This document shows, in pieces, positions 10,997 through 26,111 of a stretch of 64,000 bases of DNA. Location: positions 124,001-188,000 of IMG/VR virus record IMGVR_UViG_3300042473_001265; one strand, written 5' to 3'. The notes beneath the pieces are model-generated. The model made no database searches. It worked only from the letters and a program-made list of their open reading frames with translations, and was not told the origin of the DNA. How positions within the stretch are numbered: the stretch's first letter is position 1; every line of letters begins with the position of its first letter. The position numbers and the translations under genes were made by a program. The stretch comes from a virus.

Positions 10997-11785
10997 TCAC
11001 TGCACCACTGGCAATTCTGTTGTGTCACTGATATGATTGTACATTAGATCTTTTACTGTATCTAATCTCTTTGATTTGTTTTCTGAACCCAAAACTATCA
11101 CTGCAAATATCTGCTTGTTTCTTTCTACTAGCAAGGCCACGCACCAGCCGGCTGGATTGGTAAAGCCTGTTTTACTGACCTGTATGTTGTCAAAATCAAA
11201 CAACAATGGCTGATTGGTATTGGGTAAAGAGATTACTCGAATGCGTTTTTTAAAATGCGATTCAATTTGAATCTGTCGTTGCACACTGATTTCTCGAACT
11301 AGCACATATGTGCCAGCAGCCGTTACCAAAGTACCCATGTCTCCTGCGGTACCCAAATTGTTTCGACTTAGGCCCGACGGATCTTGAAAGCTGGTGCTGG
11401 TCATGCCCAATGCTGCTGCACGACGATTCATAGCACGAATAAATGCTGTTCGTCCACCAGGATAGTCTTGTGCCAATGTTTCTGCTGCTGCATTGTCGCT
11501 GCGAACCAGCATGGCATCAAACAACTGGCGGCGTGTGTATAGACCAGCTGGTAAATTGCTGCCTACACGATTGCTAAGTTTTACACTGCGACTCAGCACA
11601 GGATCGTGGTCCAGGGCCACTATTGCTGTCATCAGTTTGGTAATAGATGCAATGGGCCTAACACGGTTGGCCTGTTGATTTAGCACAATGGTGTCTTGAG
11701 TTTGATTGTAGACCCAGACACTGGTGGCAGCATTTGCCCAGCCAGTGGCCGCAAGTACTAATGCTGTTATAAACGGTAGTTTCAT
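10997..11785 (-). CDS. Secreted D-alanyl-D-alanine carboxypeptidase/endopeptidase (S11, PBP-type)
   Basis: All three active-site motifs of the penicillin-binding S11 family are present: SxxK as SITK (47-50), SxN as SDN (96-98) and KTG (205-207). A Sec signal peptide is visible (MKLPFITALVLAATGWANA, cleavage after 19), so the protein acts in the periplasm on peptidoglycan peptide stems. At 262 residues it lacks the C-terminal beta domain and anchor helix of DacA and is closest in layout to PbpG. Last gene of the 17-gene minus-strand operon, behind an AAGGT Shine-Dalgarno. In a phage it could assist lysis, alter the wall or release peptide substrate; which one is not decidable. Confidence 0.9.
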   Translation of the reverse strand: MKLPFITALVLAATGWANAATSVWVYNQTQDTIVLNQQANRVRPIASITKLMTAIVALDHDPVLSRSVKLSNRVGSNLPAGLYTRRQLFDAMLVRSDNAAAETLAQDYPGGRTAFIRAMNRRAAALGMTSTSFQDPSGLSRNNLGTAGDMGTLVTAAGTYVLVREISVQRQIQIESHFKKRIRVISLPNTNQPLLFDFDNIQVSKTGFTNPAGWCVALLVERNKQIFAVIVLGSENKSKRLDTVKDLMYNHISDTTELPVVQ

Positions 11786-11793
11786 ACCTTATT

Positions 11794-12342
11794 TTAAGAA
11801 AACCGCCAGTAACTTGAAACTCTAATGGTGCCCTCTGGCACTGGATTAAACATGGCATGCCACAGCAGCGGCTGACTGCCGTCAGCAGCCAAGTGATTAA
11901 GCATGATATAGCCCGAATTGGGCCGGCTTAGAAATTGATACAGTAGGTTCTCTGGGTGTTTGTAACGATAAAATCCAGTGCCATATGCCTCGCTGGGCAC
12001 TGTCCAGTACAACTGCATGCTGTTAGGTACATGTCCGTCGGTGTGCATTGCAACATCAAATCCAGGAACATCTATCCAGAAGTGGCCACCCATTGATTTA
12101 AACTCTGTGCCCAGTGCAGTATTAATTTCAGGCAAGCAATGATTGATGTATCTGCTGTAACGCTGAGCAGTGACGTCGTCCCAATTGACTTGCCGACGAG
12201 GCCAAGACTCTTGTCCGCTGCTTAAACTGGTGGACACGGCGGACCAGTCTGTGCTGACTATTTCATCTGCTTGTTCTTGGGGCAGCAAGTCGTCGACTTG
12301 CCAAAGTCTGGCACGATCATCAACTTGTGTAAATTTGGCCAT
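11794..12342 (-). CDS. 2-oxoglutarate/Fe(II)-dependent dioxygenase, 182 aa
   Basis: The metal triad is visible as HxD in MHTDGH (H100, D102) and the distal His162 in LLWHAMFNPVPEGTIRVSSY, with R174 placed to bind 2-oxoglutarate. Small enzymes of this type hydroxylate sugars, amino acids or protein side chains, and T4-like aquatic phages carry many. The ATG overlaps the carbamoyltransferase stop by one base (TAATG). Substrate unknown; hydroxylating the same structure that the carbamoyltransferase modifies is an inference from coupling. Confidence 0.85.
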   Translation of the reverse strand: MAKFTQVDDRARLWQVDDLLPQEQADEIVSTDWSAVSTSLSSGQESWPRRQVNWDDVTAQRYSRYINHCLPEINTALGTEFKSMGGHFWIDVPGFDVAMHTDGHVPNSMQLYWTVPSEAYGTGFYRYKHPENLLYQFLSRPNSGYIMLNHLAADGSQPLLWHAMFNPVPEGTIRVSSYWRFS

Positions 12343-13856
12343 TATGAATGGACCTTTACTCCGTACAATTGTTCAAATCGATCAGCGTCGGCACGATCAT
12401 TAACAACAGGCTCTCCGCGTATGTTAAGACTGGTGTTCAGCAGCATGGGACAGCCGGTCATTACAAACCACTTTTCCAAGAGTTCTCTAATGCCTGAACC
12501 ATCCGCAGGAACTGTCTGCACTCTACTAGTGCCGTCATGATGCACAATAGCAGGAAAAAGCTCAGGATACCAGCAGTTGGCGACTGCTTGCATATACCTA
12601 CTATGGCTGAAACCCCTAGGCATATCAAAATACTGATCAGCGTATTCTTCAAGGATAACTGGTGCAAATGGTCTGAATTTTTGTCTGCGTTTGATCTCAT
12701 TTACTCGATCCTTTATTTCCGGGCCGCGAGGGTCTGCTAGTAAACTCCTATTGCCTAACGCACGTGGGCCGAACTCGGCGCGTCCCGACGCCACGCCCAC
12801 AATACCATGCTGCAATAGATGATCCAGCAGCTGATTAACAGGATATTTACCACCAATGCTATCGCCCAAATAAGCGTCAGTCCAATCAATGCGACCACCG
12901 TAAGCCAACGCTGCGGCGCCAAGACTGCTGCCACCATCGCCTGGGCAGGGCATGATCCAAATATTGTCAAAATAATTTCCAATCCGTTGGTTGGCACTAC
13001 AGTTAAGGGCAACACCACCCATGTACACTAGATTGTTGCTCCAGTTGAATTGTTTTGCACGAAACATTACATTCAAAATAAGGTCTTCTGCTAGAGCCTG
13101 TGCCCCGGCAGCAATATCAAACTCTGAATAATCATTTAGATATTCAGCTGCCAGACCTGTGTGCAGATTATCTTTGAAACGAATTTCATATTCATTGTCG
13201 ACGAGATCGTAGCGCATTCGATTGCTGATATTGTTTTGTCCATATGCAGCCATGCCCATCAGGATGTATTCTTCGTCCAAGGGTCGTAGACCCACACGAG
13301 CTGTGACTGCGCTGTAAAACAAACCTATGCTGTGCGGATACCCGCGGGACCAAAGTTTTTGATAAGTTGCTCGACCCGAAGAATTGTATTCAGCACCCCA
13401 GATGGTTATAGTATCTAGTTCTCCAACAGCATCTATCACAACCACCGTGGCTCGATCATAGGGGCTGGTCTGGAATCCGGCGGCGGCGTGGGCAATATGG
13501 TGTCCTGTGTAACTGTGTCTAGCATGTAATAAAGCACTGAGATGTGGGCCAGCAGATAGATGTTTACGGAGATACTGCCCAAGAGTAAAAGAATTAAGAT
13601 CCAATGCTTCATGATATTGTCCGGAATAAAGTTGTTGTATTTTTTTGACCCATGGACGTTCGTAATAAGCAACCTGGTCCGGTGTGCCGTGACGCAAGGC
13701 TGCTGCCACTAGTTCATCATTTAGGTGTGCGTCATTCTTGATCTTGCTATAGCGTTCTGCATGTCCAGCAAACAGCACAGATCCGCCGGAGTCAATCATG
13801 CTGACAGCAGCATCGTGGTAACCGGCGCTGATTCCCAAATACTTTTTTAATTTCAT
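12342..13856 (-). CDS. NodU/CmcH-type O-carbamoyltransferase
   Basis: The 504-residue protein has the family's two-domain layout. The N-terminal Kae1-like domain has ISAGYHDAAVSMI, HHIAHAAAGF, LDEEYILMGMAAYG and GGVALNCSAN. The C-terminal domain has EFGPRALGNRSLLADPR, KFRPFAPVIL and LLNTSLNIRGEPVV. All conserved blocks are intact, so it should transfer a carbamoyl group from carbamoyl phosphate through carbamoyl-AMP to a hydroxyl, usually on a sugar. T4-like cyanophages also carry such genes. The start overlaps the stop of a 33-codon gene (ATGA) and the end is coupled to the dioxygenase (TAATG). Confidence 0.93.
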   Translation of the reverse strand: MKLKKYLGISAGYHDAAVSMIDSGGSVLFAGHAERYSKIKNDAHLNDELVAAALRHGTPDQVAYYERPWVKKIQQLYSGQYHEALDLNSFTLGQYLRKHLSAGPHLSALLHARHSYTGHHIAHAAAGFQTSPYDRATVVVIDAVGELDTITIWGAEYNSSGRATYQKLWSRGYPHSIGLFYSAVTARVGLRPLDEEYILMGMAAYGQNNISNRMRYDLVDNEYEIRFKDNLHTGLAAEYLNDYSEFDIAAGAQALAEDLILNVMFRAKQFNWSNNLVYMGGVALNCSANQRIGNYFDNIWIMPCPGDGGSSLGAAALAYGGRIDWTDAYLGDSIGGKYPVNQLLDHLLQHGIVGVASGRAEFGPRALGNRSLLADPRGPEIKDRVNEIKRRQKFRPFAPVILEEYADQYFDMPRGFSHSRYMQAVANCWYPELFPAIVHHDGTSRVQTVPADGSGIRELLEKWFVMTGCPMLLNTSLNIRGEPVVNDRADADRFEQLYGVKVHS

Positions 13857-13954
13857 TTGTAGATAAACGGATCTCGTTTACGAAGTTCTTTGAGTTTTTT
13901 ACGATAACGTATTTCTAAGCGAATACGGCTAATTAAATTTTTAATCCAGTTCAT
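13853..13954 (-). CDS. Basic 33-residue microprotein coupled to carbamoyltransferase
   Basis: A 34-codon frame starts with ATG at 13954, 8 bases after AAGGAAAA, and is overlapped at both ends by ATGA junctions: upstream with the 13951 gene and downstream with the carbamoyltransferase start at 13856. The peptide begins MNWIKNLISRIR and ends KRDPFIYK. It is very basic (about 12 Arg/Lys) and would make an amphipathic helix. I recall near-identical short peptides beside phage carbamoyltransferases, but cannot verify it. It could be a small partner protein or a translational linker. Confidence 0.7.
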   Translation of the reverse strand: MNWIKNLISRIRLEIRYRKKLKELRKRDPFIYK

Positions 13955-15054
13955 GGAGTTTTCCTTGATGAATAGTCATAGCCCGGGCGCATCATATCAA
14001 TTTGTTTTTGCTTGTAATCAGCGTCGGTCCAACAGTAATCAAATGTACTGACGACACCGTCTATTTCTATCTTGTATATATCCAAATGCGAACTCAGTAT
14101 ATCCCAAATAGCCTGATAATCAGTTGTGCCGAAACTTTGCTGTAACTGCACTTGTCCAATGGGCAGGTATCCTAAACTCAATGCTGAATCTTCGGGGTCG
14201 CGTCCATTGGCCTGCAACCACCGTTTAAATTCGTCTTGTTGATTGTTGTGCCACGGTTGATTGCCATTGTATACCACATCGTTGCCCCATTCTATGTCAA
14301 ACTCTCCGCTGTAGTATTTTAATTCTGTAATAGCTTCGCATACTGTTGCAGTAAGTTCCGGAGCATGTTCGTCACGAAACACTTCGAATAGTGTTTTGCC
14401 TATCTGTGCCCAGTGCATATAAACACCGCCCAACACACGGTCGTATCCGTTTGTTACAAAGCCCGATCTATGTGCAGGTTTTAGATTGTAACGAGCTGCT
14501 GCTAAGAATGTAGTAATTTGACTGGGGCGCAGCCAATAAGGCGTAGTGTTTGCTTTGCGCTGACTGAGAATCAGTGACTCCATTTCGTGACAGATATTGT
14601 TCAACTGTCTTATGGCATACTTGGTATCATAGTCGGCCCGTTGATAATAGTTGCTTAAATTGTTTACGGTACCTTGCAGCACTTCAAAGTGGTTGTGAAG
14701 CCTGTTCAACATGTCGTGGTTGACATGTTGTACAATTTTGTCAGGATTTTGTGACCATGGACCTGCTGTTGTAACCGTAGCAGGCGAGTATGTTTCTTTA
14801 ATTTTGTAGTCATCAAAGAAGTTGTTTACTACACTGGCCGCTTGGTTGACTTCGTTGCACAGGTAATCAAGTGTGCGAGCTGTTTTGGAAAATCCCATAA
14901 AACAAAAGTTTTTTTCCAACAGGTTGCCAGACTGTAGCAGTGTTTTGAGAGCAGGTATCCAATCTTGTGCCAATTCATTGTCTGCGGGCAGTATGGTATA
15001 GTCAACCTGATCGCTATGTTTCAACGGATTGCGTAGTACAATTTTAACAGTCAA
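13951..15054 (-). CDS. Unknown protein, 367 aa, within the radical SAM operon
   Basis: The frame opens after a TAA, and the only start before residue 50 is TTG at 15054, preceded by GGTGGA. The protein is soluble and mostly helical in the middle (QLNNICHEMESLILSQRK), with aromatic-rich segments and no Cys cluster. I recall uncharacterised relatives next to twitch radical SAM genes in marine phages. It overlaps the preceding radical SAM gene by 11 bases and the microprotein by ATGA, so it is firmly part of the operon. No catalytic motif was identified. Confidence 0.7.
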   Translation of the reverse strand: MTVKIVLRNPLKHSDQVDYTILPADNELAQDWIPALKTLLQSGNLLEKNFCFMGFSKTARTLDYLCNEVNQAASVVNNFFDDYKIKETYSPATVTTAGPWSQNPDKIVQHVNHDMLNRLHNHFEVLQGTVNNLSNYYQRADYDTKYAIRQLNNICHEMESLILSQRKANTTPYWLRPSQITTFLAAARYNLKPAHRSGFVTNGYDRVLGGVYMHWAQIGKTLFEVFRDEHAPELTATVCEAITELKYYSGEFDIEWGNDVVYNGNQPWHNNQQDEFKRWLQANGRDPEDSALSLGYLPIGQVQLQQSFGTTDYQAIWDILSSHLDIYKIEIDGVVSTFDYCWTDADYKQKQIDMMRPGYDYSSRKTP

Positions 15055-16336
15055 TTTGATTCCACCATGTTAACACATCAGGTCGGCTGGCCAGTATGTC
15101 GGCCATTGTAAATTTATCTTCACGAATTTGTTCTAGTTTTAACACACGCTGCTTGCCTCGAACAAGTCCTGCTTGCCAGGTGTCGGGCCATTGTTCTTCA
15201 AAGGTTGGGCGGGTTTTTAATTGTACCAGGATTGCTTGCACAGCTCCAGAACAAGAGGCTATCAATTCATCCAGCCACGGGTCAAGCAGGTGCCGCGGCA
15301 GAGCCAATGGGCTCATCACAATGTCAGGAGAAAACGCAAATACCACTTTTGCTAAGATATCGGTGTCTGTTTGTTGTGCAAGTTGCACAATGTTTTCAAT
15401 TTCAAACATTCCTGGCAAGGTGAGAGTAAAGTCGATTCTGACCTGGCGTCTGTGAGTTCTTGCTGCAACTGCTCTATCGTAATTTTTGCGCCAGCCAGCA
15501 TAGTCAAGGCCTGTTCTAATATATTCGCCAATGCGTTGTGTACCATCGAGACTCGCACAGATTTGCCAATCACGAAGGCCATGTAGAATCCCATCAAAGA
15601 GATCAATGCCACGATAATTAATTCTCGAAAGGTTAGTATTATATCTCGCATAGACTTTATGTCCATCTCCAAGTTCAACAATGCGTTTCATATAGCGCCA
15701 ATGTTGTTCGTACATCAAGGGTTCGCCACCAACCCAATACACTTCTTCAACGCGGTGTTCTTCAACTGCCTGCGCAAATTCTGCTTCGATTTGTTGATCT
15801 TGAAACTGAGAGATATCCTTTCTGACAGCAGGTTGCATCCAATTGTTCTTTGAATTGGACCAATCAATCATGTTGTGTTGGCGCTGTTCGCTTTCCCATG
15901 CACTGCTCAACATGTCACCGCATGTACGACATTTGAAATTGCACAGGTTACTGAATCTGTAGTCCCAACTCACTGGCAGCATGCTGGTGCTGCCGTCTGC
16001 ATCAGTGGTTTCCCAAATGCTATCATACTTATGTTTGAACATACTCCAGAAATAGCTGCGGTAAACATCGGTGTTTAGAAGTTTGCTGTTGCATACATCA
16101 CATTCTGGCAGTGTTTCTCCGGCCATCATACGGCGACGCACACTCCGCATGTGTTCACTGTTCCAGTGTTGATCCAGTGTGATGGGAGTATATTTGCCTG
16201 AGCCGGCGGCTGTGTCAATGTACTGTGTGAAACTTTGTGCAGGCTCACGGCTGGCACAGCACATTCTGCGTTCAGTTTGTGGACTCAGGTAGGTGTGAGT
16301 CCACGGCGCCATGCAAAGTGTTTCAGGCTTTGACAT
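15044..16336 (-). CDS. Twitch-type radical SAM protein (1 of 7)
   Basis: The radical SAM motif CxxxCxxC is CNFKCRTC (near residues 134-141), with the GGEP SAM-binding block in VYWVGGEPLMYE. The N-terminus has the auxiliary-cluster cysteine pattern of the twitch family: LCMAPW, RMCCASRE and ECDVCNSK. Such enzymes reduce SAM to a 5'-deoxyadenosyl radical; the N-terminal twitch domain is expected to hold a second Fe-S cluster. ATG at 16336 is preferred to TTG at 16342. It overlaps the upstream radical SAM gene by 14 bases. Substrate unknown. Confidence 0.9.
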   Translation of the reverse strand: MSKPETLCMAPWTHTYLSPQTERRMCCASREPAQSFTQYIDTAAGSGKYTPITLDQHWNSEHMRSVRRRMMAGETLPECDVCNSKLLNTDVYRSYFWSMFKHKYDSIWETTDADGSTSMLPVSWDYRFSNLCNFKCRTCGDMLSSAWESEQRQHNMIDWSNSKNNWMQPAVRKDISQFQDQQIEAEFAQAVEEHRVEEVYWVGGEPLMYEQHWRYMKRIVELGDGHKVYARYNTNLSRINYRGIDLFDGILHGLRDWQICASLDGTQRIGEYIRTGLDYAGWRKNYDRAVAARTHRRQVRIDFTLTLPGMFEIENIVQLAQQTDTDILAKVVFAFSPDIVMSPLALPRHLLDPWLDELIASCSGAVQAILVQLKTRPTFEEQWPDTWQAGLVRGKQRVLKLEQIREDKFTMADILASRPDVLTWWNQIDC

Positions 16337-17537
16337 AGTCAATCAATGCTGCAAACTCCGGCTCTACATCTGCTAGATTTTGTTGTCGTTTACGGTCAAG
16401 ATCAAGGATATTCATTCGTAGCAATTGTCCATCCAAACTGTTGCCACGATTCATAAATTCTGCGGCACTGACAAATTCTGACAGTATGTTAGCAGGAACA
16501 TCAGCCCGGGTCAATTGTTTTGTAATCGCTGTTTTGGCTGATTCAGGCAGGGTACTGATGCTGAAGTAATAGGCATCATGCATCATGTTCCAGTATATAA
16601 AATCAAACTTTTGCTGTATTAACCATTGGGCCACTGTTTCAAGATAATACACATTGAACACATTGATGGTACAACAGGCCTGCAATGTAATGTTGCTGTT
16701 GCGACTGCGTAGTTGTCTAAAGCGTTCTGTATTTGCAACCACATCGGCCCAGACGGCATTGCTGCGCTGATATTCGAATCGGTGTTCAACATCGTCAATG
16801 CTTAGTGCAATTTCAACATGTTTGAAATGTTTCCAAATTGCTTCGCCTTCTTCGGGGTACTGTGTGCCATTGGTGTTGTAGTGTATTTCAACTTGTGCAG
16901 CGCGACCTGTGTCTACTAATTTTTGTAACAGTTGGAAATGTTCCTTGATCATGAACGGTTCACCACCAGTGAACTCAATGTAACGAATGTTGTCTAGATG
17001 TTGATCTAGATCCGTCCAAAATTCAGCACTTTCTCTTGGCCAGGCACCGTCTTTCAACATCTGATAAGCAAAGCTACTGCGAGTTTCTTCTGCACGATTG
17101 AACCGAATTTCTTCTGCTGCAAACTGGCTGCTGCTCCAAGATCCACATATGCGGCATTTTAGATTGCAAATGTTGCCCAGTTTGAGATCAAGAAACATCA
17201 AGGGCATTGCATCTGCTGTCCACGACACATTGGAATCGAGCAGGTGTTTGAGTCTGTCTAGTGTATGCATGCGCTTGCTGGTACGCCCGGCTCGCTCTTC
17301 ATTCCAGCAGCGGCGACAGTTTTGTGGTTTTTTGCCAGCAAGAAAATCTTCGCGCAGCGTTCGCATTGCTCGGCTATTTTGTATTTCCGTCAAGCTGGTG
17401 TTGGCCAACTTGTATTTGTTGCCGTCGTTGTCTTCAATCTCGTCAATGGCCAAACAACAAGGTCGTACTGTTCCCACTGGACTTGCTTCCAAGCTGATCC
17501 AAGGTAGTACACAAAAAGTATCATGGGGTATGTTCAT
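16323..17537 (-). CDS. Twitch-type radical SAM protein (2 of 7)
   Basis: Radical SAM motif CNLKCRIC in GNICNLKCRICGSW and FTGGEPFMIKEHF for SAM binding. Auxiliary cysteines sit in TFCVLPWISLEASP, TVRPCCLAID and NCRRCWNEERAG. The 404 residues match the other twitch enzymes here in length and order. The start overlaps the upstream stop by ATGA. The substrate-binding half after GGEP (HYNTNGTQYP, LSIDDVEHRFEY) is closest to the enzyme at 57645, suggesting those two are a subgroup. Reaction unknown. Confidence 0.9.
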   Translation of the reverse strand: MNIPHDTFCVLPWISLEASPVGTVRPCCLAIDEIEDNDGNKYKLANTSLTEIQNSRAMRTLREDFLAGKKPQNCRRCWNEERAGRTSKRMHTLDRLKHLLDSNVSWTADAMPLMFLDLKLGNICNLKCRICGSWSSSQFAAEEIRFNRAEETRSSFAYQMLKDGAWPRESAEFWTDLDQHLDNIRYIEFTGGEPFMIKEHFQLLQKLVDTGRAAQVEIHYNTNGTQYPEEGEAIWKHFKHVEIALSIDDVEHRFEYQRSNAVWADVVANTERFRQLRSRNSNITLQACCTINVFNVYYLETVAQWLIQQKFDFIYWNMMHDAYYFSISTLPESAKTAITKQLTRADVPANILSEFVSAAEFMNRGNSLDGQLLRMNILDLDRKRQQNLADVEPEFAALIDYVKA

Positions 17538-18853: not shown

Positions 18854-20187
18854 AATGATTGATACCATTCTTTTAGGTTAGGAAATGTGTTGCTAAAGTT
18901 TTTGTTCCTGCGCACATCATATTGATCAAAGAACTGGCGAAAGTCGTTGTGTAACTTGGGCATGTCAAATGTGTCGCTGTGTGGAGTTTTAACAATTTTC
19001 AAATAGTCAATCAATCTGCGAACATGATTCAGTTCAAATTCTTGACATGCTGATCTATTGTCAACTGATTCTTCCCACATGATCAAACAATTGCGAGCAG
19101 AGGACAACAAGGCAGGTGATAATACCAACGGAGATTGAAAACTTGGAAAGCGTAATATATTTAGTGTAAAATTAACTCGTTGTGTTCCGTAGGCTTTTTT
19201 TAATTTTATCAACTGTGTTAGGAATTCGGGCAATGTTTCTAAACACAATGCATTGATTGTACACATCACATGCACAGCACGAATATGATCGTGCTCCAAC
19301 AATTCTTGAACATTGTGCATCCATAGATCATAGTCCAAGCCGTCTCTTATGTATTCAGCAGCCGAGCCTGTTGCTTCGCAACTGGTGTATATCTCTAGGT
19401 GTGGGATATCTTGAACTCGTTCAATGAACTCCTGTAGCTTGATGCGATCCATGCCCAGATTTGAATTGATTGCTAGACGAGTTTGACTGCGACCTTGATT
19501 TGTTTTGAACCAGTCAATCAGCTTCCAGGTCTCACCGCTCATCAAGGGTTCGCCGCCGGTGATTCTCAGCTCTTGTAGTGTTCGGTGGAGGTCTGATTCC
19601 CACCAAGCAAAGAACGCTTCAACATATGGATTCGTCTCACCAAAGCGGTATAGTTGACTGCTATCGTGAGTGTGAGTAAAGTGGTTGCGCCCATCAGACA
19701 CCAAATTGGCATAGCCGCCGTGCTTTCGAATGTCATTGACCCATGTGCTACTGAAAGCAGGGTTACAATAGCTACAAGCAAATTGGCAAGTGCGGTCGAA
19801 CGCAATTTCAAGTGTGCGAAGATTGACGTCTTCATTGTACGGAGTTTGGTAAGCTTCATCAAGTGCCTTTATAGGGTAAATTTTACTTTTGTATACACGG
19901 TCGCTGACAGCATCAGTGGCCATGTCTTCGATCTTCCAGCAGTATTCACAACCGGCAGGGCGATCACCTGCCAGCATCTTCTTGCGATCATCTTTTTTCT
20001 TTGCTGTGTTATGCAGTGCAGCCGGATTGGTTTTTAGTTCTTCGAGATCAACAGCATGTGCTGGTGGATGATGACAACTGGTTGTTTGCCCGGAACCCAA
20101 CCATATAGTGGCATTGTACCATTTGGCTGCACAGAAACTAGCACTTTTGGTATCCAAGACCTGGTGCTTGAAATCTAGATCATTCAT
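18850..20187 (-). CDS. Twitch-type radical SAM protein, HPP subgroup (4 of 7)
   Basis: Radical SAM motif CQFACSYC followed by NPAFSSTW, and RITGGEPLMSGETW. The N-terminus differs from enzymes 1-3: CAAKWYNATIWLGSG, then SCHHPPAH, then NPAALHNT and CEYCWKIED. This pattern is shared closely with the protein at 21270-22694, so the two are duplicates within a separate subgroup. The extra His residues next to the Cys could supply or tune the auxiliary cluster. It overlaps the glycosyltransferase gene by 8 bases. Substrate unknown. Confidence 0.88.
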   Translation of the reverse strand: MNDLDFKHQVLDTKSASFCAAKWYNATIWLGSGQTTSCHHPPAHAVDLEELKTNPAALHNTAKKKDDRKKMLAGDRPAGCEYCWKIEDMATDAVSDRVYKSKIYPIKALDEAYQTPYNEDVNLRTLEIAFDRTCQFACSYCNPAFSSTWVNDIRKHGGYANLVSDGRNHFTHTHDSSQLYRFGETNPYVEAFFAWWESDLHRTLQELRITGGEPLMSGETWKLIDWFKTNQGRSQTRLAINSNLGMDRIKLQEFIERVQDIPHLEIYTSCEATGSAAEYIRDGLDYDLWMHNVQELLEHDHIRAVHVMCTINALCLETLPEFLTQLIKLKKAYGTQRVNFTLNILRFPSFQSPLVLSPALLSSARNCLIMWEESVDNRSACQEFELNHVRRLIDYLKIVKTPHSDTFDMPKLHNDFRQFFDQYDVRRNKNFSNTFPNLKEWYQSL

Positions 20188-21286
20188 TGAAATGTTTGTT
20201 TATAAATTGTTTAAAGCGGGCCGGAAATTCAGATCGAACTCGAGTTCGCATTTCCGCAAGATGTTGCTGGTTGTATTTACATACATTATAGCATTCTTTT
20301 AAGAAACTTGCAAGGTCTTGTTGACATAAATCTTTAACCACACGACTCACTTGCACCATTCTATCTTGATTGTTTGCTATTTCATCAAACCTCTCGTCAA
20401 TCACATGTCCGAATGTTTGAAATCCTAGATTATGCATATCTCTATAATATCCCTGATTGGCAACCGCAATCCATGGATGTCCAATTGCAATGGGTTTCCA
20501 TATTTTCTCTGTTCTAAAACTGTAGCGATAGTTTTGAACAGTTTCGGTCACCAAGCTAAAATAAGTATTGGTATACTGTGCCGGAACTAGATACACGTCT
20601 CCCCATATGTCAGACTCGAACAAATATTTTTTTACATTTTCATCAGTCTGAGATATGTCAACATTGAACCGATCAAGTTCGTATTGCCGATCGAGCAATT
20701 TCACCGGGCCATTGGCAGGATCTAAATTGCTCCATAATGCTGTATCAAGTACGTCGGCTAACTGTTCAATCATAAATTTTCTATGCTGTCTTCCTTTTCC
20801 GTTCAAAAATAAAAATTTATATGGTCGATTGGTTGAATAGGTGCGTTTATAAGTTTTTATAGCGTTGATATTTTCATCGTAGTCTAGTATTTTAGGAAGA
20901 AAATTTTCATATACAAGATGCAGATATTGTGCCGGAACATCGCCGCCGGTTAATAATAGTATTTTTCCTTTTTTGAGTAACTCAAGTAGATCAGTATTTT
21001 CATTTCCATTGGCCAGTTTAGTACGAAATTCTGGCCGGCCGCAACGATTTATTAAAGTTGCCGATCCTTCACTTGGTTCAGCATATATAGCTTTTATAGT
21101 ATTAGTTTTTACCAACTCTACAATTTTTTCAAAATTTTCTCCAAACTCAGCGTGACTTATCAAATATATAGCATTGGGAACCAAAGTGTGTTCTTGAAAA
21201 ATAGAAAATTTATCGTCGGCATACACAGCAAGTTCATCGTGTATTCCACATCCTGTGTCTATTATTAATTTACGATTGCCGAGCAT
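20180..21286 (-). CDS. Fucosyltransferase-like glycosyltransferase (paralogue 3)
   Basis: The C-terminal block FRTEKIWKPIAIGHPWIAVA followed by LGFQTFGHVIDERFDEI matches the TEK donor-site signature of the proteins at 7662 and 8779, so this is a third, more divergent relative. The N-terminal half is Asn/Ile-rich and unlike the other two. ATG at 21286 behind AAGGAATG is preferred to a GTG at 21313. It lies between two HPP-type radical SAM genes with overlaps on both sides. This stretch looks more A+T-rich than its neighbours, which may indicate separate acquisition. Confidence 0.7.
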   Translation of the reverse strand: MLGNRKLIIDTGCGIHDELAVYADDKFSIFQEHTLVPNAIYLISHAEFGENFEKIVELVKTNTIKAIYAEPSEGSATLINRCGRPEFRTKLANGNENTDLLELLKKGKILLLTGGDVPAQYLHLVYENFLPKILDYDENINAIKTYKRTYSTNRPYKFLFLNGKGRQHRKFMIEQLADVLDTALWSNLDPANGPVKLLDRQYELDRFNVDISQTDENVKKYLFESDIWGDVYLVPAQYTNTYFSLVTETVQNYRYSFRTEKIWKPIAIGHPWIAVANQGYYRDMHNLGFQTFGHVIDERFDEIANNQDRMVQVSRVVKDLCQQDLASFLKECYNVCKYNQQHLAEMRTRVRSEFPARFKQFINKHFNE

Positions 21287-22694
21287 GGTACTCACATTCC
21301 TTCCACCAGGCACTCATTTCTGGAAACACGCTCAAGAAGTCTGTACCGTGTCTGTGATCTGCTTCTGTAAAGAACCGATAGAAGTCAGCTTTATTTCGTT
21401 GCAGGTACGCAGAGTCTAATCGTTGTCCATCACGCATCCAGGCTATGTCGCGATCAAGACGAGATATTTCATAATCTTTGAAACCGTGCAATCTGGTTGC
21501 TTCTGTTTCGATACCGTGTTGCATTGATATTTTTAATTTTTCCAACTGTGCTGCATAGCTTTCTGGCAACAATTGTAAACTTTGCCAAGCGGGTTGTCGC
21601 AGCACTGGAGTATCAAACCACACACGCTGATATGTGCTGCTGTGTTTTTTTCTAAGTTCTATAATGCCATCTAACAGCTCGGGTAAACTTGTCACACTTA
21701 GGTTATTCATTGTCACAATAAATGTCACACTGTTGCGCGAAGGAACTTCGGTTAAGAACTGATTTACTCTGCTCCACACCAAATCAAAATTCATGCCATG
21801 GCGCATGTACTCGGCCTGACGGCCCCATCCGTCTAGACTGATGTATTGCATAAAGTGCTCAACCACTCCTTCTTGGCACAATTGTTTGGTGTAGGCCAAA
21901 TAGCGTTGCCAACTTTTTTCATCCACACTGAAGTTGCTGGTTACATTGAGATGCAGATTAGATTTGGGATTGGCCAGCACATAGTCAAACACACGATAGG
22001 TATTCCGATCCAGCAATGGTTCGCCGCCGGTCATTCTGAAGTGCTCCAACTCGGGATACAAGGTGGGCCACCACTGCCAAAACGCTTCCACATAGGGATT
22101 GTGCTCACGAACAGGAATGGATTTACGGTCACCTGCAAAGTGCTCAGGCGCATTGTGCGGGATGGATGTAGGATAAGCACCGTGCCGATCAGTTTCTTGT
22201 TGCCAGGTGCTGCTGAACTGTGGGCTACAATAGCTGCAAGCAAGGTTACAAGCGTTGTTGAAATTTACTTCAACATAACTGGGAGTAATGTCAGCGTCCC
22301 ACTCTGCATTCACAATGGTGCCAAAGTCTTTGGCAGCCCACGGTTCTCCTGATCTGTAATGTCGGTCACTGAGTTTGCCATTGTCTTCCATTGTCCAACA
22401 GTAGCTGCATTCAGCAGGACGTGTGCCCTCTAGCATTTGTTTACGCTGTTGTTTTTTATAATCAGTGTTGTGTAATGCAGCAGGATTGCGACCAATGGCA
22501 TCTACAGGAATACGATGCAAGGGCGGGTGGTAACAACTGTTGTTAAGGCCAGTGGTCAGGTGTAGACTGACTTGTTTCCATTTGGCCAGACACATGCTGG
22601 GACTAACAGTATCTAACTGTTGTTTGATTAGTTCGGCATCACTTAAAAACTTTGATTTAAAGTCTTCGTTGACTTCGTCACCTTTGTTTTGCAT
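21270..22694 (-). CDS. Twitch-type radical SAM protein, HPP subgroup (5 of 7)
   Basis: Radical SAM motif CNLACSYC in NNACNLACSYCSPQFS and FRMTGGEPLLDRNTY. N-terminal pattern MCLAKWKQVSLHL, SCYHPPLH, NPAALHNT and CSYCWTMED, nearly identical in layout to the enzyme at 18850-20187. At 474 residues it is the longest of the operon set, with about 34 residues before the first Cys. The conserved NPYVEAFW/F-x-WW block in both proteins after the radical SAM motif is probably substrate-binding. TGA and the next ATG are adjacent. Confidence 0.88.
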   Translation of the reverse strand: MQNKGDEVNEDFKSKFLSDAELIKQQLDTVSPSMCLAKWKQVSLHLTTGLNNSCYHPPLHRIPVDAIGRNPAALHNTDYKKQQRKQMLEGTRPAECSYCWTMEDNGKLSDRHYRSGEPWAAKDFGTIVNAEWDADITPSYVEVNFNNACNLACSYCSPQFSSTWQQETDRHGAYPTSIPHNAPEHFAGDRKSIPVREHNPYVEAFWQWWPTLYPELEHFRMTGGEPLLDRNTYRVFDYVLANPKSNLHLNVTSNFSVDEKSWQRYLAYTKQLCQEGVVEHFMQYISLDGWGRQAEYMRHGMNFDLVWSRVNQFLTEVPSRNSVTFIVTMNNLSVTSLPELLDGIIELRKKHSSTYQRVWFDTPVLRQPAWQSLQLLPESYAAQLEKLKISMQHGIETEATRLHGFKDYEISRLDRDIAWMRDGQRLDSAYLQRNKADFYRFFTEADHRHGTDFLSVFPEMSAWWKECEYHARQS

Positions 22695-23621
22695 TCACCA
22701 ACCTTCTTGACTACGAATAACATCAATCTCTCTCACAGCGACACCGCGATTGTGCCAGTTACTGCGATAATGATGTTTAAAGAATTTACTAGCAGACTCA
22801 TCAATCCATACCATTGGTAAATCCAACTGCGTAGTCAATTCGTTTGCTACTCGGCTCAACACCACTTCCGGGTCAGTGTCTTTTACTGTGTCCCACAGTT
22901 GTTCCAGCGCAGCAAAATCTTGTACTGCGCGATGGTCCCAGTTGGTCAGCATGGTCATGTATGAACCCATGCGCGATCCAGCCATACTCCAAATGCCGTG
23001 TTCAGCATCGCGACCCACATTGTGCCATATGGTCAAGTTGTCGAGATTGCGTTGATGCACACGATTTTGAAACTCTGCCACTGTGGGTTTCTTACCTGTG
23101 TTCAAACACATTTTGACCCCTTCGCGAAACCCGGCACGCCATGCGTGAAAAGCTGAACCATTGGGATATGTGGTTGAATAGCAATCATGCATGGCCCAGT
23201 ACAACGGATCAAAGCAAAACTCCACTTCGGTTGCTGCACGACCGTCGGTGGCTTCGTGTGTTCGCATATCGTTGACAAACTTTCTAGTCCACGAACTCAG
23301 CCCGCCGTTGCCATACATCAATCCGTTTATGTGATTACGGGCACGCCAGCGGAACACTGCGGATTCCCATTGTGCATCAGGCAACTCCAGTGTCTGGTTA
23401 AAAAATTCAGGGTCTGGCATGTTGTCGCCGTCGATCAACACAAAGCGTTCGGTATCACTGGCCGCAGCAGCAGCTTTGTGTGCTGCATCACTGCCCCGAA
23501 CACCATCCACTCGCTTGGCCCAAGGAACCATATTGCGAATCTTTATCCAGAATTCTTCTTTTTGTGGTTCATCATAAGTTAGATAAATGCAGTCAAGGTC
23601 TGCGATGTCAATCCGATTCAT
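22695..23621 (-). CDS. GT-A-like glycosyltransferase-type protein, 308 aa
   Basis: It begins DLDCIYLTYDEPQ, followed by RVDGVRGSDAAHKAAAAA and FVLIDGDNMPDPEF. The last resembles the DxD metal/nucleotide-sugar motif of GT-A glycosyltransferases (DGDN). NHINGLMYGNGGLSSWTRKF follows. The same succession of blocks appears in the C-terminal domain of the 606-residue protein at 5843, so the two share a domain. Role inferred: sugar transfer or glycan modification. It overlaps the preceding gene by 14 bases. Confidence 0.72.
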   Translation of the reverse strand: MNRIDIADLDCIYLTYDEPQKEEFWIKIRNMVPWAKRVDGVRGSDAAHKAAAAASDTERFVLIDGDNMPDPEFFNQTLELPDAQWESAVFRWRARNHINGLMYGNGGLSSWTRKFVNDMRTHEATDGRAATEVEFCFDPLYWAMHDCYSTTYPNGSAFHAWRAGFREGVKMCLNTGKKPTVAEFQNRVHQRNLDNLTIWHNVGRDAEHGIWSMAGSRMGSYMTMLTNWDHRAVQDFAALEQLWDTVKDTDPEVVLSRVANELTTQLDLPMVWIDESASKFFKHHYRSNWHNRGVAVREIDVIRSQEGW

Positions 23622-24003
23622 GTGATTTTAAACTCCATTTTGTATGTGGTTGTTGCGGATCAACAACAATGCTGATGTTGCTGGGTACGCAAGGTGTACC
23701 GGTTGAGCCGGGTACTAGTTTGGTAACTGTTTTCTTTGGCACTATGTGTACAAGTTTTCCTTCAATGACCTGCACACGATGTGAGCTCAGTCGATATGTT
23801 TCAGCATCTATGTCTATGTAATTACCTGGCTGGTGTTCCATGCTGTAAGATACCGGGCGACCATGTTCGTCGTAGTACAGCCTAAAAAACACAGGCGCAG
23901 GTTCTGGCACAGGTTCTGCCCAGGCCTTCCAAAAATTTTCTTCAGTTTCATTCACGGTCCGGGGCCAATCCATTGCTGTGTTTATGAGCCGCTGTGTCGA
24001 CAT
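23608..24003 (-). CDS. Conserved phage protein of unknown function, about 131 aa
   Basis: The core PGNYIDIDAETYRLSSHRVQ, VIEGKLVHIVPKKTVTKLVP and then VDPQQPHTKWSLK is a pattern I recall in hypothetical proteins of many T4-like aquatic phages. The N-terminal half is Pro/Trp-rich (FWKAWAEPVPEPAPVFF). The start is uncertain: ATG at 24003 or a second ATG at 23973, neither with a clear Shine-Dalgarno. It overlaps both neighbours. The 'KLVHI..K' and 'HTKW' blocks suggest a small beta-rich domain. No function known. Confidence 0.65.
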   Translation of the reverse strand: MSTQRLINTAMDWPRTVNETEENFWKAWAEPVPEPAPVFFRLYYDEHGRPVSYSMEHQPGNYIDIDAETYRLSSHRVQVIEGKLVHIVPKKTVTKLVPGSTGTPCVPSNISIVVDPQQPHTKWSLKSHESD

Positions 24004-24229
24004 CTTGATCAAATCGTTTCACTTGCACAGGGTCAATACCCAGTACTTTGGCGTAGGAGCACAACAAACATTTGGGATTGCCACAATCCATGGCATGCTG
24101 TTTTGCAAACTTGTGTGGTTGACTGACATCCGATCCTTTGGATTTTGCAATCCGGGTCTGCTTCTTTACAGCGTTTTCATCTTTGAGCAGTCGTTTGCTG
24201 TGTTTGATTTTGTCTTGTTCAGTACTCAT
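23948..24229 (-). CDS. Small Cys-rich basic protein, 93 aa
   Basis: ATG at 24229 lies behind GGAGATTGAC and overlaps the upstream stop by ATGA. The protein is Lys-rich at the N-terminus and contains HAMDCGNPKCLLCSYAKV, three cysteines in a CxxxxCxxC spacing that could bind zinc or iron. Short proteins with a 'CGNPKC-x2-C' core are common, uncharacterised phage proteins. The overlap with 23608-24003 is about 56 bases and shares no frame. Confidence 0.72.
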   Translation of the reverse strand: MSTEQDKIKHSKRLLKDENAVKKQTRIAKSKGSDVSQPHKFAKQHAMDCGNPKCLLCSYAKVLGIDPVQVKRFDQDVDTAAHKHSNGLAPDRE

Positions 24230-24969
24230 GTCAATCTCCAGTCTTTCATATGATAATGCACAAATCCCCACTGTGCTATGGTGTTTATACGCACACCCGG
24301 ATTGGTATTTTCCCATACCAATTCTTTGGTCCAGTCGTTAGTGTGGGTGGCAACAATGCCTGGTTTCATATGCACCATAGTGGGTCCATATCCCAGGGGC
24401 AAGGTCACTTGTTCTCTGCCTGTGATTTCTACTGCCATTGCATAAACAACATCAGTTGACGGAACTTCTTCGGGAAATTTCAACAGTGTTTTAAAGTTGT
24501 CCCAGTTTTCAAAAATACTCCTGACCAATTGAAAAAAGTCCTGTGCTGTTTTACTTACACGCCAATATGTAATAGCATTATAAACATCAGGCAACTTGTT
24601 CACATCAAACAATTTTCTGTAACGACGATTGCTACCAGGTTGATCGTAAAAGTCTCTACATCCCTGACTGATCACAACATCACGATGTTCAAACATGGTC
24701 CACCAGTGATTCACTGGACTGGCTGCAATCATATCTGCTTCCAGTTTGATAGTTTGCCTGTAAGGGCTGGCAGCAAACACTTGCCAGTCGTTGGCAAAGC
24801 CACCGCGATCGCCGTAGGGCAACATTTCTTTTGTCAATACAGTTATGTTGGCATCAGGATGCCATGCTCGTATGCTGTCGGCCAACTGGTTGGCGCAGGC
24901 CACATAGTCCACTGTGTCTGTGTTTACAGCTGGGATTAGGTATCCGCGCTCAGCAAGGATTTTCAACAA
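24226..24969 (-). CDS. GT-A-fold glycosyltransferase-like protein, 247 aa
   Basis: It opens with DTVDYVACANQLADSIRAW and NITVLTKEMLP, then TIKLEADMIAASP, where EAD takes the place of the usual DxD. This is the layout of GT8-like retaining glycosyltransferases and is shared with the next protein (24950-25753). Both have a later block of aromatic residues and a HMKPG- or HAMGK-type C-terminal segment. The loss of the first Asp of DxD may alter metal use. It overlaps both neighbours (ATGA downstream, 20 bases upstream). Confidence 0.72.
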   Translation of the reverse strand: MLKILAERGYLIPAVNTDTVDYVACANQLADSIRAWHPDANITVLTKEMLPYGDRGGFANDWQVFAASPYRQTIKLEADMIAASPVNHWWTMFEHRDVVISQGCRDFYDQPGSNRRYRKLFDVNKLPDVYNAITYWRVSKTAQDFFQLVRSIFENWDNFKTLLKFPEEVPSTDVVYAMAVEITGREQVTLPLGYGPTMVHMKPGIVATHTNDWTKELVWENTNPGVRINTIAQWGFVHYHMKDWRLT

Positions 24970-25753
24970 TTGCTCCTAGCTGTTGTTTGCCCATGGCATG
25001 AAAGTCCTGACTTATAGTAACCCATCGTGCTTTGTTGTCAATTGTTTTAAAGTCTATTCTGTATAGATCCGGTGATAACTGTGTCAATCGGTGTTCTGGT
25101 GTAACGCTGACCAGTGAACCCGGGATTGAGTTGACTTTCAATGTGTGTCCGTTTAGAGTATTTAACGCAATGCTCAGTGCATGGTCGTTTCTGTAGGTGG
25201 CTGTGTTATTTTTGTATAGATTTCTATAGTGTGTCCAGTTGTCTCTGACCATTTGCATTGAATCAAACAACAATTCAACCGACTTGCTGCGATTGAACAT
25301 CATCACAGTGGCCCACCACATGGGCATGCGATGACTGCCAAAGTAATTTAGATCATCAAATGTTCTAACACCTGTGGCATCGGCGGCCCATCTATGGCAT
25401 AAAAATTCTTGATGGCTTTGTAGTATAGTAGCAAGTTGATCACTGGCCACAACATAATCGGCGTCCAATACCAATGTTTGATCCCATGGACTAAGACGAT
25501 AAGCGTCCATACGGTTGGTGTTGTGCCACGCAACAGGTTCGCCAATGTCAGCAAAGTGTCGTACACCACTGCCTGCTGGATGGTCAACCAACACAACACG
25601 ATCAAAACTGTGGCCAACGAGTGGTTCTTTGTCTGTAACTAAACAAACAGGAATTTTTAAATGGCGGTGTATGTTGGCAGCAGACCAATTGGCCATGGCA
25701 ACATAATCAATATGCTTGTTGTTAAACGCAAATATTAGTGCGCCAGTGGTCAT
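24950..25753 (-). CDS. GT-A-fold glycosyltransferase-like protein, 267 aa
   Basis: KHIDYVAMANWSAANIHRHL and VCLVTDKEPLVGHSF begin the domain, with LVLDADYVVASDQL containing the intact DxD motif expected to bind the metal and nucleotide-sugar donor. It is paralogous to the protein at 24226. ATG at 25753 overlaps the upstream stop (ATGA); the frame extends further but without reason to use it. The two genes probably form a pair acting on related acceptors. Acceptor and sugar unknown. Confidence 0.75.
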   Translation of the reverse strand: MTTGALIFAFNNKHIDYVAMANWSAANIHRHLKIPVCLVTDKEPLVGHSFDRVVLVDHPAGSGVRHFADIGEPVAWHNTNRMDAYRLSPWDQTLVLDADYVVASDQLATILQSHQEFLCHRWAADATGVRTFDDLNYFGSHRMPMWWATVMMFNRSKSVELLFDSMQMVRDNWTHYRNLYKNNTATYRNDHALSIALNTLNGHTLKVNSIPGSLVSVTPEHRLTQLSPDLYRIDFKTIDNKARWVTISQDFHAMGKQQLGAIVENPC

Positions 25754-26058
25754 CGTTTTTTGTTTAATTCTTCGTATTCGACCAACCATGCTGTCATTTG
25801 TTCTTGCCAGCGACCCAGTGCTAGATACTGTAGTTCTGCGGGATTAATCTGCACTGGTGTTTCGTACAGGTCTAAAATTACCACTGCATCTTGTACTGGA
25901 ATTGCTTGCAACAGTGTCAGCAGTTCAGGGCCAGCACACCACATGCCACCATTGTAGGCAAACAACATTTTGGCGGCATATTTTTCTTTGAGCAGACGGC
26001 GGGCGGCCACATGCTCAAAACGAGTGCGACCAGTTTCGATCAATTGTTCAGTATTCAT
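25750..26058 (-). CDS. Conserved small phage protein, first gene of the operon, 102 aa
   Basis: The helical, charged protein (RRLLKEKYAAKMLFAYNGGM, LDLYETPVQINPAELQYLA, WQEQMTAWLVEYEELNKKR) resembles hypothetical proteins I recall from T4-like cyanophages. No Shine-Dalgarno is visible before ATG 26058, and the predicted transcription start falls at or next to the ATG, so the mRNA may be leaderless. As first gene it would be the most strongly transcribed of the 17. Function unknown. Confidence 0.72.
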   Translation of the reverse strand: MNTEQLIETGRTRFEHVAARRLLKEKYAAKMLFAYNGGMWCAGPELLTLLQAIPVQDAVVILDLYETPVQINPAELQYLALGRWQEQMTAWLVEYEELNKKR

Positions 26059-26065
26059 GTAGATT

Positions 26066-26094
26066 ATTATACAGCATACACAGACAAAAGTAAA
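26066..26094 (-). promoter_or_regulatory. Sigma70-type promoter of the 15-kb operon
   Basis: On the minus strand, TTTACT (26094-26089), a 17-base spacer and a perfect TATAAT (26071-26066). It is the only promoter-like sequence between the virion module and the operon. Its -35 box overlaps the T-rich tail of the terminator at 26086-26111. The expected start site (about 26059) abuts the first ATG at 26058. Confidence 0.65.
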
Positions 26095-26111
26095 GGGCCC
26101 TAAGGCCCTTT
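26086..26111 (-). terminator. Intrinsic terminator ending the virion module
   Basis: AAAGGGCC and GGCCCTTT pair perfectly over 8 bp (26092-26099 with 26104-26111) around a 4-base loop. On the minus strand the stem is followed by TTTACTTTTG. It lies 23 bases beyond the stop of the 26134 gene and would stop read-through into the operon. The stem is symmetrical, but no plus-strand transcript is expected here. Confidence 0.8.

What the first reader, a model, noticed from the sequence alone, without database searches (positions are those of the whole stretch)
10997..26058. A 15-kb, 17-gene phage operon coupling five radical SAM enzymes to glycan-type enzymes
Seen: 17 same-strand genes with overlaps or gaps of 10 bases or less, one promoter at the head, and a terminator before it. 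Products include five twitch radical SAM proteins, four glycosyltransferase-like proteins, a carbamoyltransferase, a dioxygenase and a secreted peptidoglycan peptidase. Radical SAM enzymes are rarely so dense in a phage. I infer one biosynthetic pathway producing a decorated product, perhaps on the host surface or on a virion protein; the target is unknown. This is the strongest candidate in the window for an undescribed system.
Basis: partly seen in the sequence, partly recalled or inferred. Interest (0 to 1): 0.9.

Follow-up and report, generated by a model that had tools for sequence, protein, structure and literature searches.

The report
Jumbo-phage five-radical-enzyme sugar-decoration operon
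A family of uncultured, mostly very large aquatic phages carries, next to its tail genes, a tightly packed 17-gene operon that keeps five different working radical-SAM enzymes together with sugar-transfer enzymes and a carbamoyltransferase; it most likely builds an unusual sugar decoration, and predatory-bacterium relatives carry the same five enzyme types.

Summary
Seventeen minus-strand genes, no gap above 8 bases, run from 26058 to 10997. One is a 33-aa microgene under strong purifying selection. All five radical SAM (rSAM) proteins belong to NCBIfam N_Twi_rSAM and keep every cluster cysteine across relatives. In 121 non-redundant IMG/VR relatives the core is together and in order: two GT8-like glycosyltransferases, a new GT-A glycosyltransferase (G22695), R5-R4-R3-R2-R1, a phage-only protein (X13951), the microgene and a TobZ-like carbamoyltransferase. 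Seeding from an independent virion gene gives the same result, so this is a core module of a 121Q/Atu_ph07-like jumbo-phage lineage. The peptidase and putative dioxygenase are cargo. Each of R1-R5 has orthologues in Bdellovibrionota; one chromosomal contig carries all five types. R3-R2 are naturally fused in about 13 contigs, so they probably work as a pair.

Best reading: a multi-step radical-SAM sugar-tailoring and glycan-assembly pathway, probably decorating the virion, alternatively the host envelope. It is a new variant of a known kind (phage glycan islands beside tail-fibre genes); rSAM-rich phages and rSAM cassettes in such islands were reported before, but not this conserved five-enzyme set, its bacterial counterpart, the fusions or the microgene.

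The parts
26092..26111 (-). terminator-like hairpin that closes the upstream tail-fibre operon
   Evidence: GC-rich hairpins at the same place in many relatives
26066..26094 (-). sigma-70-like promoter TTTACT-17-TATAAT, -10 only 7 bases before the first ATG
   Evidence: conserved TATAAT before the ATG in relatives
25750..26058 (-). h25750, 102-aa protein of unknown function, first gene; in 85% of relatives
24950..25789 (-). G24950, GT8-like glycosyltransferase with a DxD motif (annotated start may be about 12 codons too early); 93% of relatives
   Evidence: homologous to G24226; invariant D109/D111
24226..24969 (-). G24226, GT8/glycogenin-like glycosyltransferase, present in all testable relatives
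   Evidence: glycogenin match E about 2e-4; phrog_1903
23948..24316 (-). h23948, small protein with CGNPKCLLC motif, 17% of relatives by tblastn
23608..24012 (-). h23608, small protein of unknown function, 73% of relatives
22695..23621 (-). G22695, new GT-A-fold glycosyltransferase family, 58-95% identical, in all testable relatives
   Evidence: AlphaFold pLDDT 88; best PDB match the PBCV-1 capsid glycosyltransferase; alignment
21270..22694 (-). R5, N_Twi radical SAM enzyme
   Evidence: NF033640 322 bits; cysteines invariant; orthologues in Bdellovibrionota
20180..21313 (-). G20180, unknown family between R5 and R4; 64% of relatives
   Evidence: no Pfam match
18850..20187 (-). R4, N_Twi radical SAM enzyme
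   Evidence: NF033640 303 bits; 45-53% identical bacterial orthologues; tree
17534..18868 (-). R3, N_Twi radical SAM enzyme; fused to R2 in about 13 relatives
   Evidence: NF033640 401 bits; fusions; tree
16323..17537 (-). R2, N_Twi radical SAM enzyme; fused to R3 in about 13 relatives
   Evidence: NF033640 346 bits; fusions
15044..16342 (-). R1, N_Twi radical SAM enzyme, the most conserved of the five (at least 68% identical)
   Evidence: NF033640 279 bits; alignment; 9 of 369 Bdellovibrionota genomes
13951..15054 (-). X13951, protein with a well-predicted fold without PDB match, known only from phages; 96% of relatives
   Evidence: pLDDT 88.5; no PDB match below E 0.4; phage relatives in BFVD
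13853..13954 (-). 33-aa microprotein gene, C-terminus RKKLKELRKRDPFIYK nearly invariant; overlaps X13951 and the carbamoyltransferase by 4 bases each
   Evidence: 86 of 87 relatives; 26,908 synonymous vs 1,571 nonsynonymous codon differences
12342..13856 (-). CT, TobZ/NodU-type O-carbamoyltransferase; 94% of relatives
   Evidence: Pfam, phrog_1601, PDB relatives
11794..12342 (-). OG, 182-aa protein, putative dioxygenase not confirmed; 6% of relatives, cargo
10997..11785 (-). S11 D-Ala-D-Ala-carboxypeptidase-like protein with N-terminal hydrophobic segment; 2% of relatives, cargo
   Evidence: Pfam 1e-36
9965..10984 (+). flanking amidinotransferase of the AGAT/StrB1/SxtG type, opposite strand, 45% of relatives
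26134..27126 (-). T26134, variable structural-type protein directly upstream, in 97 of 98 relatives; candidate acceptor

Best explanation
The operon is a core, probably late-expressed gene module that makes and attaches an unusual carbamoylated glycan. Two GT8-like and one new GT-A glycosyltransferase assemble or transfer sugars. The five N-terminal-twitch radical SAM enzymes each carry out a different radical step (epimerisation, dehydrogenation or deoxygenation type) on sugar or cyclitol units, with R3 and R2 working as a pair. The carbamoyltransferase caps the product, with the microprotein as its coupled helper or membrane tether. The most likely acceptor is a virion protein of the adjacent tail-fibre module. 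Shown: co-inheritance, order, intact active-site motifs, GT-A fold of G22695 (by prediction), carbamoyltransferase family, R3-R2 fusions, bacterial orthologues, selection on the microgene. Inferred: that the substrate is a sugar, the chemistry of each rSAM, late expression, the role of the microprotein, and the virion as target.
For: Core set in fixed order beside the tail-fibre genes in 121 non-redundant relatives and when seeded from G22695 or from the independent virion gene T28508 (G22695 42/42, R5 34/35). All five rSAMs keep CxxxCxxC and the four N-terminal twitch cysteines in 541 sequences, so none is a decayed copy. GT evidence. TobZ/GdmN/NovN-like carbamoyltransferase; these act on sugars or antibiotic scaffolds (general knowledge). 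Cargo inserted in the cluster is rich in sugar and tailoring enzymes: epimerase, GDP-mannose dehydratase, RmlD, UDP-glucose dehydrogenase, PfkB, DegT, FkbM, hexapeptide, GDSL. A Bdellovibrionota locus with R4 also has two GT1 glycosyltransferases, an ABC-2 exporter, an rSAM-DegT aminotransferase fusion, an amidinotransferase and, in the next 18 kb, a carbamoyltransferase. R3-R2 fusions. For the virion: fixed linkage to the tail genes, and slow change of the core (R1 at least 68%, G22695 at least 58%), as expected for a fixed acceptor. Weak: G22695's best fold match is the PBCV-1 capsid glycosyltransferase.
Against: No substrate, product or acceptor is known. No nucleotide-sugar synthesis gene is in the core, so host sugars must be used. 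The cluster has its own promoter and follows a terminator, so co-expression with tail genes is not shown. In some bacteria (G125:C18) R1-R2-R3 lie among housekeeping genes with no glycosyltransferase beside them. G22695's match to the capsid enzyme is at TM about 0.3-0.46, enough for the fold, not for the function.
Confidence: 0.4

Rival explanations
1. Same glycan chemistry, but the product alters the host envelope (O-antigen or capsule) during infection, for example to exclude competing phages or to release progeny.
For: Pelagimyophage and cyanomyophage host-recognition clusters beside tail-fibre genes hold glycosyltransferases, LPS genes and rSAM cassettes and were interpreted this way (PMC7029224). 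The window has a DacA-like S11 peptidase, relatives carry GDSL hydrolases and sugar enzymes in the cluster, and a bacterial counterpart lies beside an ABC-2 exporter and GT1 genes.
Against: Such host-targeted islands are expected to be hypervariable, whereas this core is present in nearly every lineage examined and slowly evolving. The peptidase is in only 2% of relatives.
Confidence: 0.3
2. The rSAM enzymes modify a peptide or protein (RiPP-like); a small cluster protein, such as the 33-aa microprotein, or a tail protein is the substrate.
For: Many SPASM/twitch rSAM enzymes mature peptides, and weak NCBIfam hits to peptide maturases occur. A 33-aa gene with a nearly invariant C-terminus is translationally coupled in the cluster.
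Against: The microgene follows the carbamoyltransferase into phages in which the five-rSAM array is not seen (L330, L378, L381, L382) and is absent from the 369 Bdellovibrionota genomes searched, which include those with the rSAM set. A precursor with glycosyltransferases and a carbamoyltransferase as partners would be unusual. No RiPP recognition element was searched for.
Confidence: 0.15
3. The enzymes hypermodify phage DNA bases.
For: rSAM enzymes and glycosyltransferases occur in known phage DNA hypermodification pathways (general knowledge).
Against: No thymidylate-synthase-type hydroxymethylase (PF00303) in the 340-kb record, which may be incomplete. The cluster sits with tail-fibre genes, not replication genes, and has cellular orthologues.
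Confidence: 0.05
4. No single pathway: a tail-adjacent landing site where unrelated metabolic genes accumulate.
For: Slots between G22695 and R5, between R2 and R1 and after the carbamoyltransferase do collect variable cargo; S11 and OG are such cargo.
Against: The core of about ten genes is constant in presence and order across relatives down to about 45-60% identity.
Confidence: 0.05

Closest known systems
Host-recognition cluster (HRC) of pelagimyophages and cyanomyophages (PMC7029224)
   Same: Sits by the tail-fibre genes; holds glycosyltransferases, LPS-type enzymes and radical SAM cassettes; carbamoyltransferases of the same family occur in Synechococcus, Prochlorococcus and Pelagibacter phages.
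   Different: Different phage lineage (121Q/Atu_ph07-like jumbo). Here the core is fixed in content and order rather than hypervariable. The five orthologous rSAM types, G22695, X13951 and the microgene have no close counterpart in cultured phages.
rSAM-rich T4-like environmental phage genomes (TARA_ERS488813_N000010, 12 rSAM genes, PMC5332604)
   Same: Many rSAM genes in one phage genome; the window's phage has 13 rSAM matches.
   Different: There only a count tied to Fe-S cluster supply; no conserved five-enzyme operon was described in the passage read.
Bdellovibrionota chromosomal N_Twi_rSAM clusters (G124:C41 and others)
   Same: Orthologues of R1, R2, R3, R4 and R5 on one contig, each in a supported clade with the phage type.
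   Different: Different gene order; no G22695, X13951 or microgene orthologue beside them; in some genomes split over several loci.
TobZ / NodU / GdmN O-carbamoyltransferases
   Same: Both family domains and detectable homology over most of the protein.
   Different: Acceptor unknown; preceded by a microprotein gene not reported with these enzymes in anything read here.
PBCV-1 capsid glycosyltransferase (2p6w, 2p72)
   Same: GT-A fold, viral, best Foldseek match to G22695.
   Different: About 12% identity, TM 0.3-0.46; no evidence of the same donor or acceptor.

Membership tests
NCBIfam NF033640 (N_Twi_rSAM) | Score above curated cut-off (170 bits) over the whole model | tested here: met
   All five: 279, 346, 401, 303, 322 bits
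NCBIfam NF033640 (N_Twi_rSAM) | rSAM CxxxCxxC and N-terminal twitch cysteines | tested here: met
   Invariant in R1-R5 across 95-117 relatives each
TobZ/NodU-type carbamoyltransferase | Carbam_trans_N and Carbam_trans_C domains | tested here: met
   Pfam 8.7e-34 and 2.1e-46; PDB homologues
TobZ/NodU-type carbamoyltransferase | Carbamoyl transfer to a hydroxyl | not testable with these tools
   Needs an assay
GT8/glycogenin-like glycosyltransferase (G24226, G24950) | Homology to a GT8 protein and DxD motif | tested here: inconclusive
   Glycogenin E about 2e-4 over residues 4-114; G24950 homologous to G24226; no Pfam hit
GT-A-fold glycosyltransferase (G22695) | GT-A fold | tested here: met
   Predicted model; Foldseek matches viral and bacterial GT-A enzymes, prob 1.00 for the best
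Phage host-recognition cluster (HRC) | Lies beside tail-fibre genes and contains glycosyltransferases | tested here: met
Phage host-recognition cluster (HRC) | Hypervariable gene content | tested here: not met
   Core constant in 121 relatives; only cargo slots vary
RiPP biosynthetic cluster | Dedicated precursor peptide acted on by the rSAM | tested here: inconclusive
   33-aa microgene present, but it also occurs where the array is not seen and not in bacteria searched
RiPP biosynthetic cluster | RiPP recognition element | not tested
   No search was made for it
Phage DNA hypermodification pathway | Thymidylate-synthase-type hydroxymethylase in the genome | tested here: not met
   PF00303 absent from the 340-kb record
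Peptidase S11 | Score above Pfam cut-off | tested here: met
   127.1 vs 27.6 bits
AGAT/StrB1/SxtG amidinotransferase (flanking gene 9965-10984) | Sequence homology to AGAT-family structures | tested here: met
   E 7e-14 to AGAT, also HsvA, StrB1, SxtG

The most novel reading that the evidence does not exclude
R1-R5 form one biosynthetic relay, not described in the literature read here, in which five distinct radical SAM enzymes act in order (R3 with R2 as a complex) on one substrate to build a carbamoylated sugar or cyclitol; Bdellovibrionota and jumbo phages share it, and the 33-aa microprotein is an essential adaptor or substrate of it.
Probability: 0.3. Interest if true: 0.85.

Novelty: new variant of a known kind. 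Interest (0 to 1): 0.62.

Why it matters
Five paralogous, catalytically intact radical SAM enzymes kept together in fixed order by a whole phage lineage, with orthologues of each in a bacterial phylum, point to a multi-step radical pathway of unknown chemistry that is valuable to both. The natural R3-R2 fusion, the new GT-A family, the phage-only fold of X13951 and the microprotein give concrete handles. Characterising any of them would assign a first function to part of NF033640, and would show whether jumbo phages build their own virion glycans.

Tried and rejected
Cultured-phage counterparts: no megablast match. R3 finds only 22-25% identical phage proteins, R5 only Vibrio phages K566/K567, G22695, X13951 and the microgene none. 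The K566 rSAM genes (L169) are general N_Twi, not orthologues of R1-R5. Close bacterial homologues by peptide pattern: none; they appeared only with whole-genome search in Bdellovibrionota. A broad N_Twi alignment could not be used for a scan. X13951 has no PDB fold match. T4-type late promoters (TATAAATA): none in the window. Rejected as core: S11 peptidase, putative dioxygenase, amidinotransferase (2%, 6%, 45%). DNA hypermodification judged unlikely. A Bdellovibrionota host was considered but not shown: orthology alone does not prove it. The moraphage lineage (PMC12619734) has core glycosyltransferases, but its text mentions no radical SAM.
Full report
What was checked. The window is bases 124001-188000 of a 340,172-base virus record. 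The region 10997-26058 holds 17 minus-strand genes with overlaps or gaps of at most 8 bases. The seventeenth gene is easily missed: a 33-codon ORF at 13853-13954 that overlaps X13951 and the carbamoyltransferase by 4 bases on either side. A terminator-like hairpin and a TTTACT-17-TATAAT promoter-like site lie ahead of the first gene. The TATAAT is conserved there in relatives, mostly 5-9 nt before the ATG (42 of 89 have one within about 110 bases), which implies a nearly leaderless message. Two labels did not survive: no library supports the dioxygenase, and G20180 has no glycosyltransferase match.

What the genes are. All five rSAM proteins are NF033640 N_Twi_rSAM; the record holds 13 matches to that model, ten above its cut-off. 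G22695 is predicted to fold as a GT-A glycosyltransferase (pLDDT 88), with the PBCV-1 capsid glycosyltransferase as best PDB match at weak TM-score. G24226 matches glycogenin weakly and is homologous to G24950. The carbamoyltransferase is of the TobZ/GdmN/NovN type. X13951 has a confident model without PDB match and relatives only in phages. The opposite-strand neighbour at 9965 is an AGAT/StrB1/SxtG-type amidinotransferase.

Is it a unit? IMG/VR searches with R3 and R4 gave 160 loci, 121 distinct at 95% nucleotide identity over part of R4. R1, R2, R5, G22695 and G24226 were present wherever testable, X13951 in 96%, the carbamoyltransferase in 94%, G24950 in 93%, in the same order beside the tail genes (order read). 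S11 was in 2% and OG in 6%. R3 and R4 were search seeds, so their own presence is partly built in. Seeding with G22695 instead found R5 in 57 of 59 (most other absences there are loci that end too soon). Seeding with the virion gene T28508 found G22695 in 42 of 42 and R5 in 34 of 35. Limits: each search kept its 80 best matches, so distant relatives are under-sampled. Two loci (L237, L245) keep the glycosyltransferase head but have other rSAM and hydrolase genes in place of the array.

Are the five rSAMs distinct and active? All rSAM and N-terminal cluster cysteines are invariant in 95-117 sequences of each type. In a tree of 74 sequences each phage type groups with bacterial proteins at SH-aLRT 100. 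That tree was a quick search with several long branches, and two R2 rows and one R5 row fell elsewhere. The bacterial proteins come from Bdellovibrionota: 101 of 369 genomes match R4 at E below 1e-20, 14 of them with a best match above 400 bits. R1 orthologues occur in 9 of 369 genomes, all of which also match R4. One contig (G124:C41) carries all five types in about 10 kb, flanked by genes I read as obgE, rlmH, phosphoglycerate mutase and phosphofructokinase, so it appears chromosomal. R3 and R2 are fused into single ORFs of about 850 aa in about 13 contigs, and an R2-like domain is fused to R1 in two or three. This suggests direct partnership of R3 and R2.

Context for function. Cargo genes in the phage clusters include epimerase, GDP-mannose dehydratase, RmlD, UDP-glucose dehydrogenase, PfkB, DegT, FkbM methyltransferase, hexapeptide and GDSL families, besides AMP-binding and halogenase proteins. 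In Bdellovibrionota, G055 has R4 with an amidinotransferase, two GT1 genes, an ABC-2 exporter, an rSAM-aminotransferase fusion and a carbamoyltransferase in the next 18 kb. G183 has GDSL, NTP-transferase and phosphotransferase genes near the set. In G125:C18, however, R3-R1-R2 lie among housekeeping genes. The sugar reading is therefore likely but not secured.

The microgene. It is present in 86 of 87 loci that contain both neighbours, 71 with the identical ending RKKLKELRKRDPFIYK. Over the last 16 codons there are 26,908 synonymous and 1,571 nonsynonymous pairwise codon differences, which is what a translated, constrained protein shows. It abuts the carbamoyltransferase with an ATGA overlap in 43 of 86. 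It also accompanies carbamoyltransferases in other phages, and was not found in the 369 bacterial genomes or in cultured phages.

Comparison with the literature. Host-recognition clusters of pelagimyophages hold glycosyltransferases and rSAM cassettes beside tail-fibre genes (PMC7029224). An environmental T4-like genome with 12 rSAM genes was noted in 2017 (PMC5332604). Virion glycans are known in mycobacteriophages (cited in PMC12619734). The backbone of this phage is nearest to jumbo phages such as Atu_ph07 and 121Q (34% identity in a baseplate protein), in which no close counterpart of the rSAM set was found. The system is thus a new variant of a known kind, with a conserved core that the known examples lack.

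Verdict. Most likely a glycan-tailoring and attachment pathway whose target is the virion (0.4) or the host envelope (0.3). A peptide-modifying system remains possible (0.15). Nothing biochemical has been shown.

Noticed in passing
13853-13954 (-); also L330, L337, L378, L381, L382, L339, L351: The RKxxKELRKRDPFIYK microgene occurs in phages where the five-rSAM array was not seen, usually near a carbamoyltransferase; in L339 and L351 no carbamoyltransferase was found in the stretch held.
   Followed up: partly
L009-L168, gene R3: R3 identity to the window copy is bimodal (about 70-85% or 44-54%), also among phages whose other core genes look alike, as if two alleles were exchanged.
   Followed up: no
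L237 and L245, downstream of G22695: The rSAM array is replaced by an opposite-strand set of other N_Twi/rSAM and GDSL-like genes; L245 also appears (by eye) to have X13951-like and G22695-like proteins next to an N_Twi rSAM.
   Followed up: partly
57552-59135 (+), 62604-63572 (+), and G000:C1 21293, 237067, 245555, 247471, 274395: Further N_Twi or classic rSAM genes scattered over the same phage genome, 13 matches in all.
   Followed up: partly
29279-43726 (-): A 4,815-aa protein with a weak FG-GAP repeat match beside the baseplate wedge gene; Atu_ph07 has a structural gene of similar size in the same place.
   Followed up: no
L271-L273, L269 (G001, Bdellovibrionia MAG): A bacterial genome with 15 N_Twi_rSAM matches, several clustered with classic rSAM genes and a G22695-like protein.
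   Followed up: partly
L297:38-790, L300:3350-4288, L303:7173-8102, L304:9199-10116: A conserved protein of about 310 aa beside R4/R5 in Bdellovibrionota with a GLSDLDLSL-type motif that looks like a Pol-beta-type nucleotidyltransferase; no Pfam match for the two tested.
   Followed up: partly
L303:14036-15973: A natural fusion of a radical SAM/SPASM enzyme with a DegT-type sugar aminotransferase in a polysaccharide-type locus.
   Followed up: no
26058-26094 (-) and the same place in relatives: The operon promoter lies so close to the start codon that the message would be nearly leaderless.
   Followed up: partly
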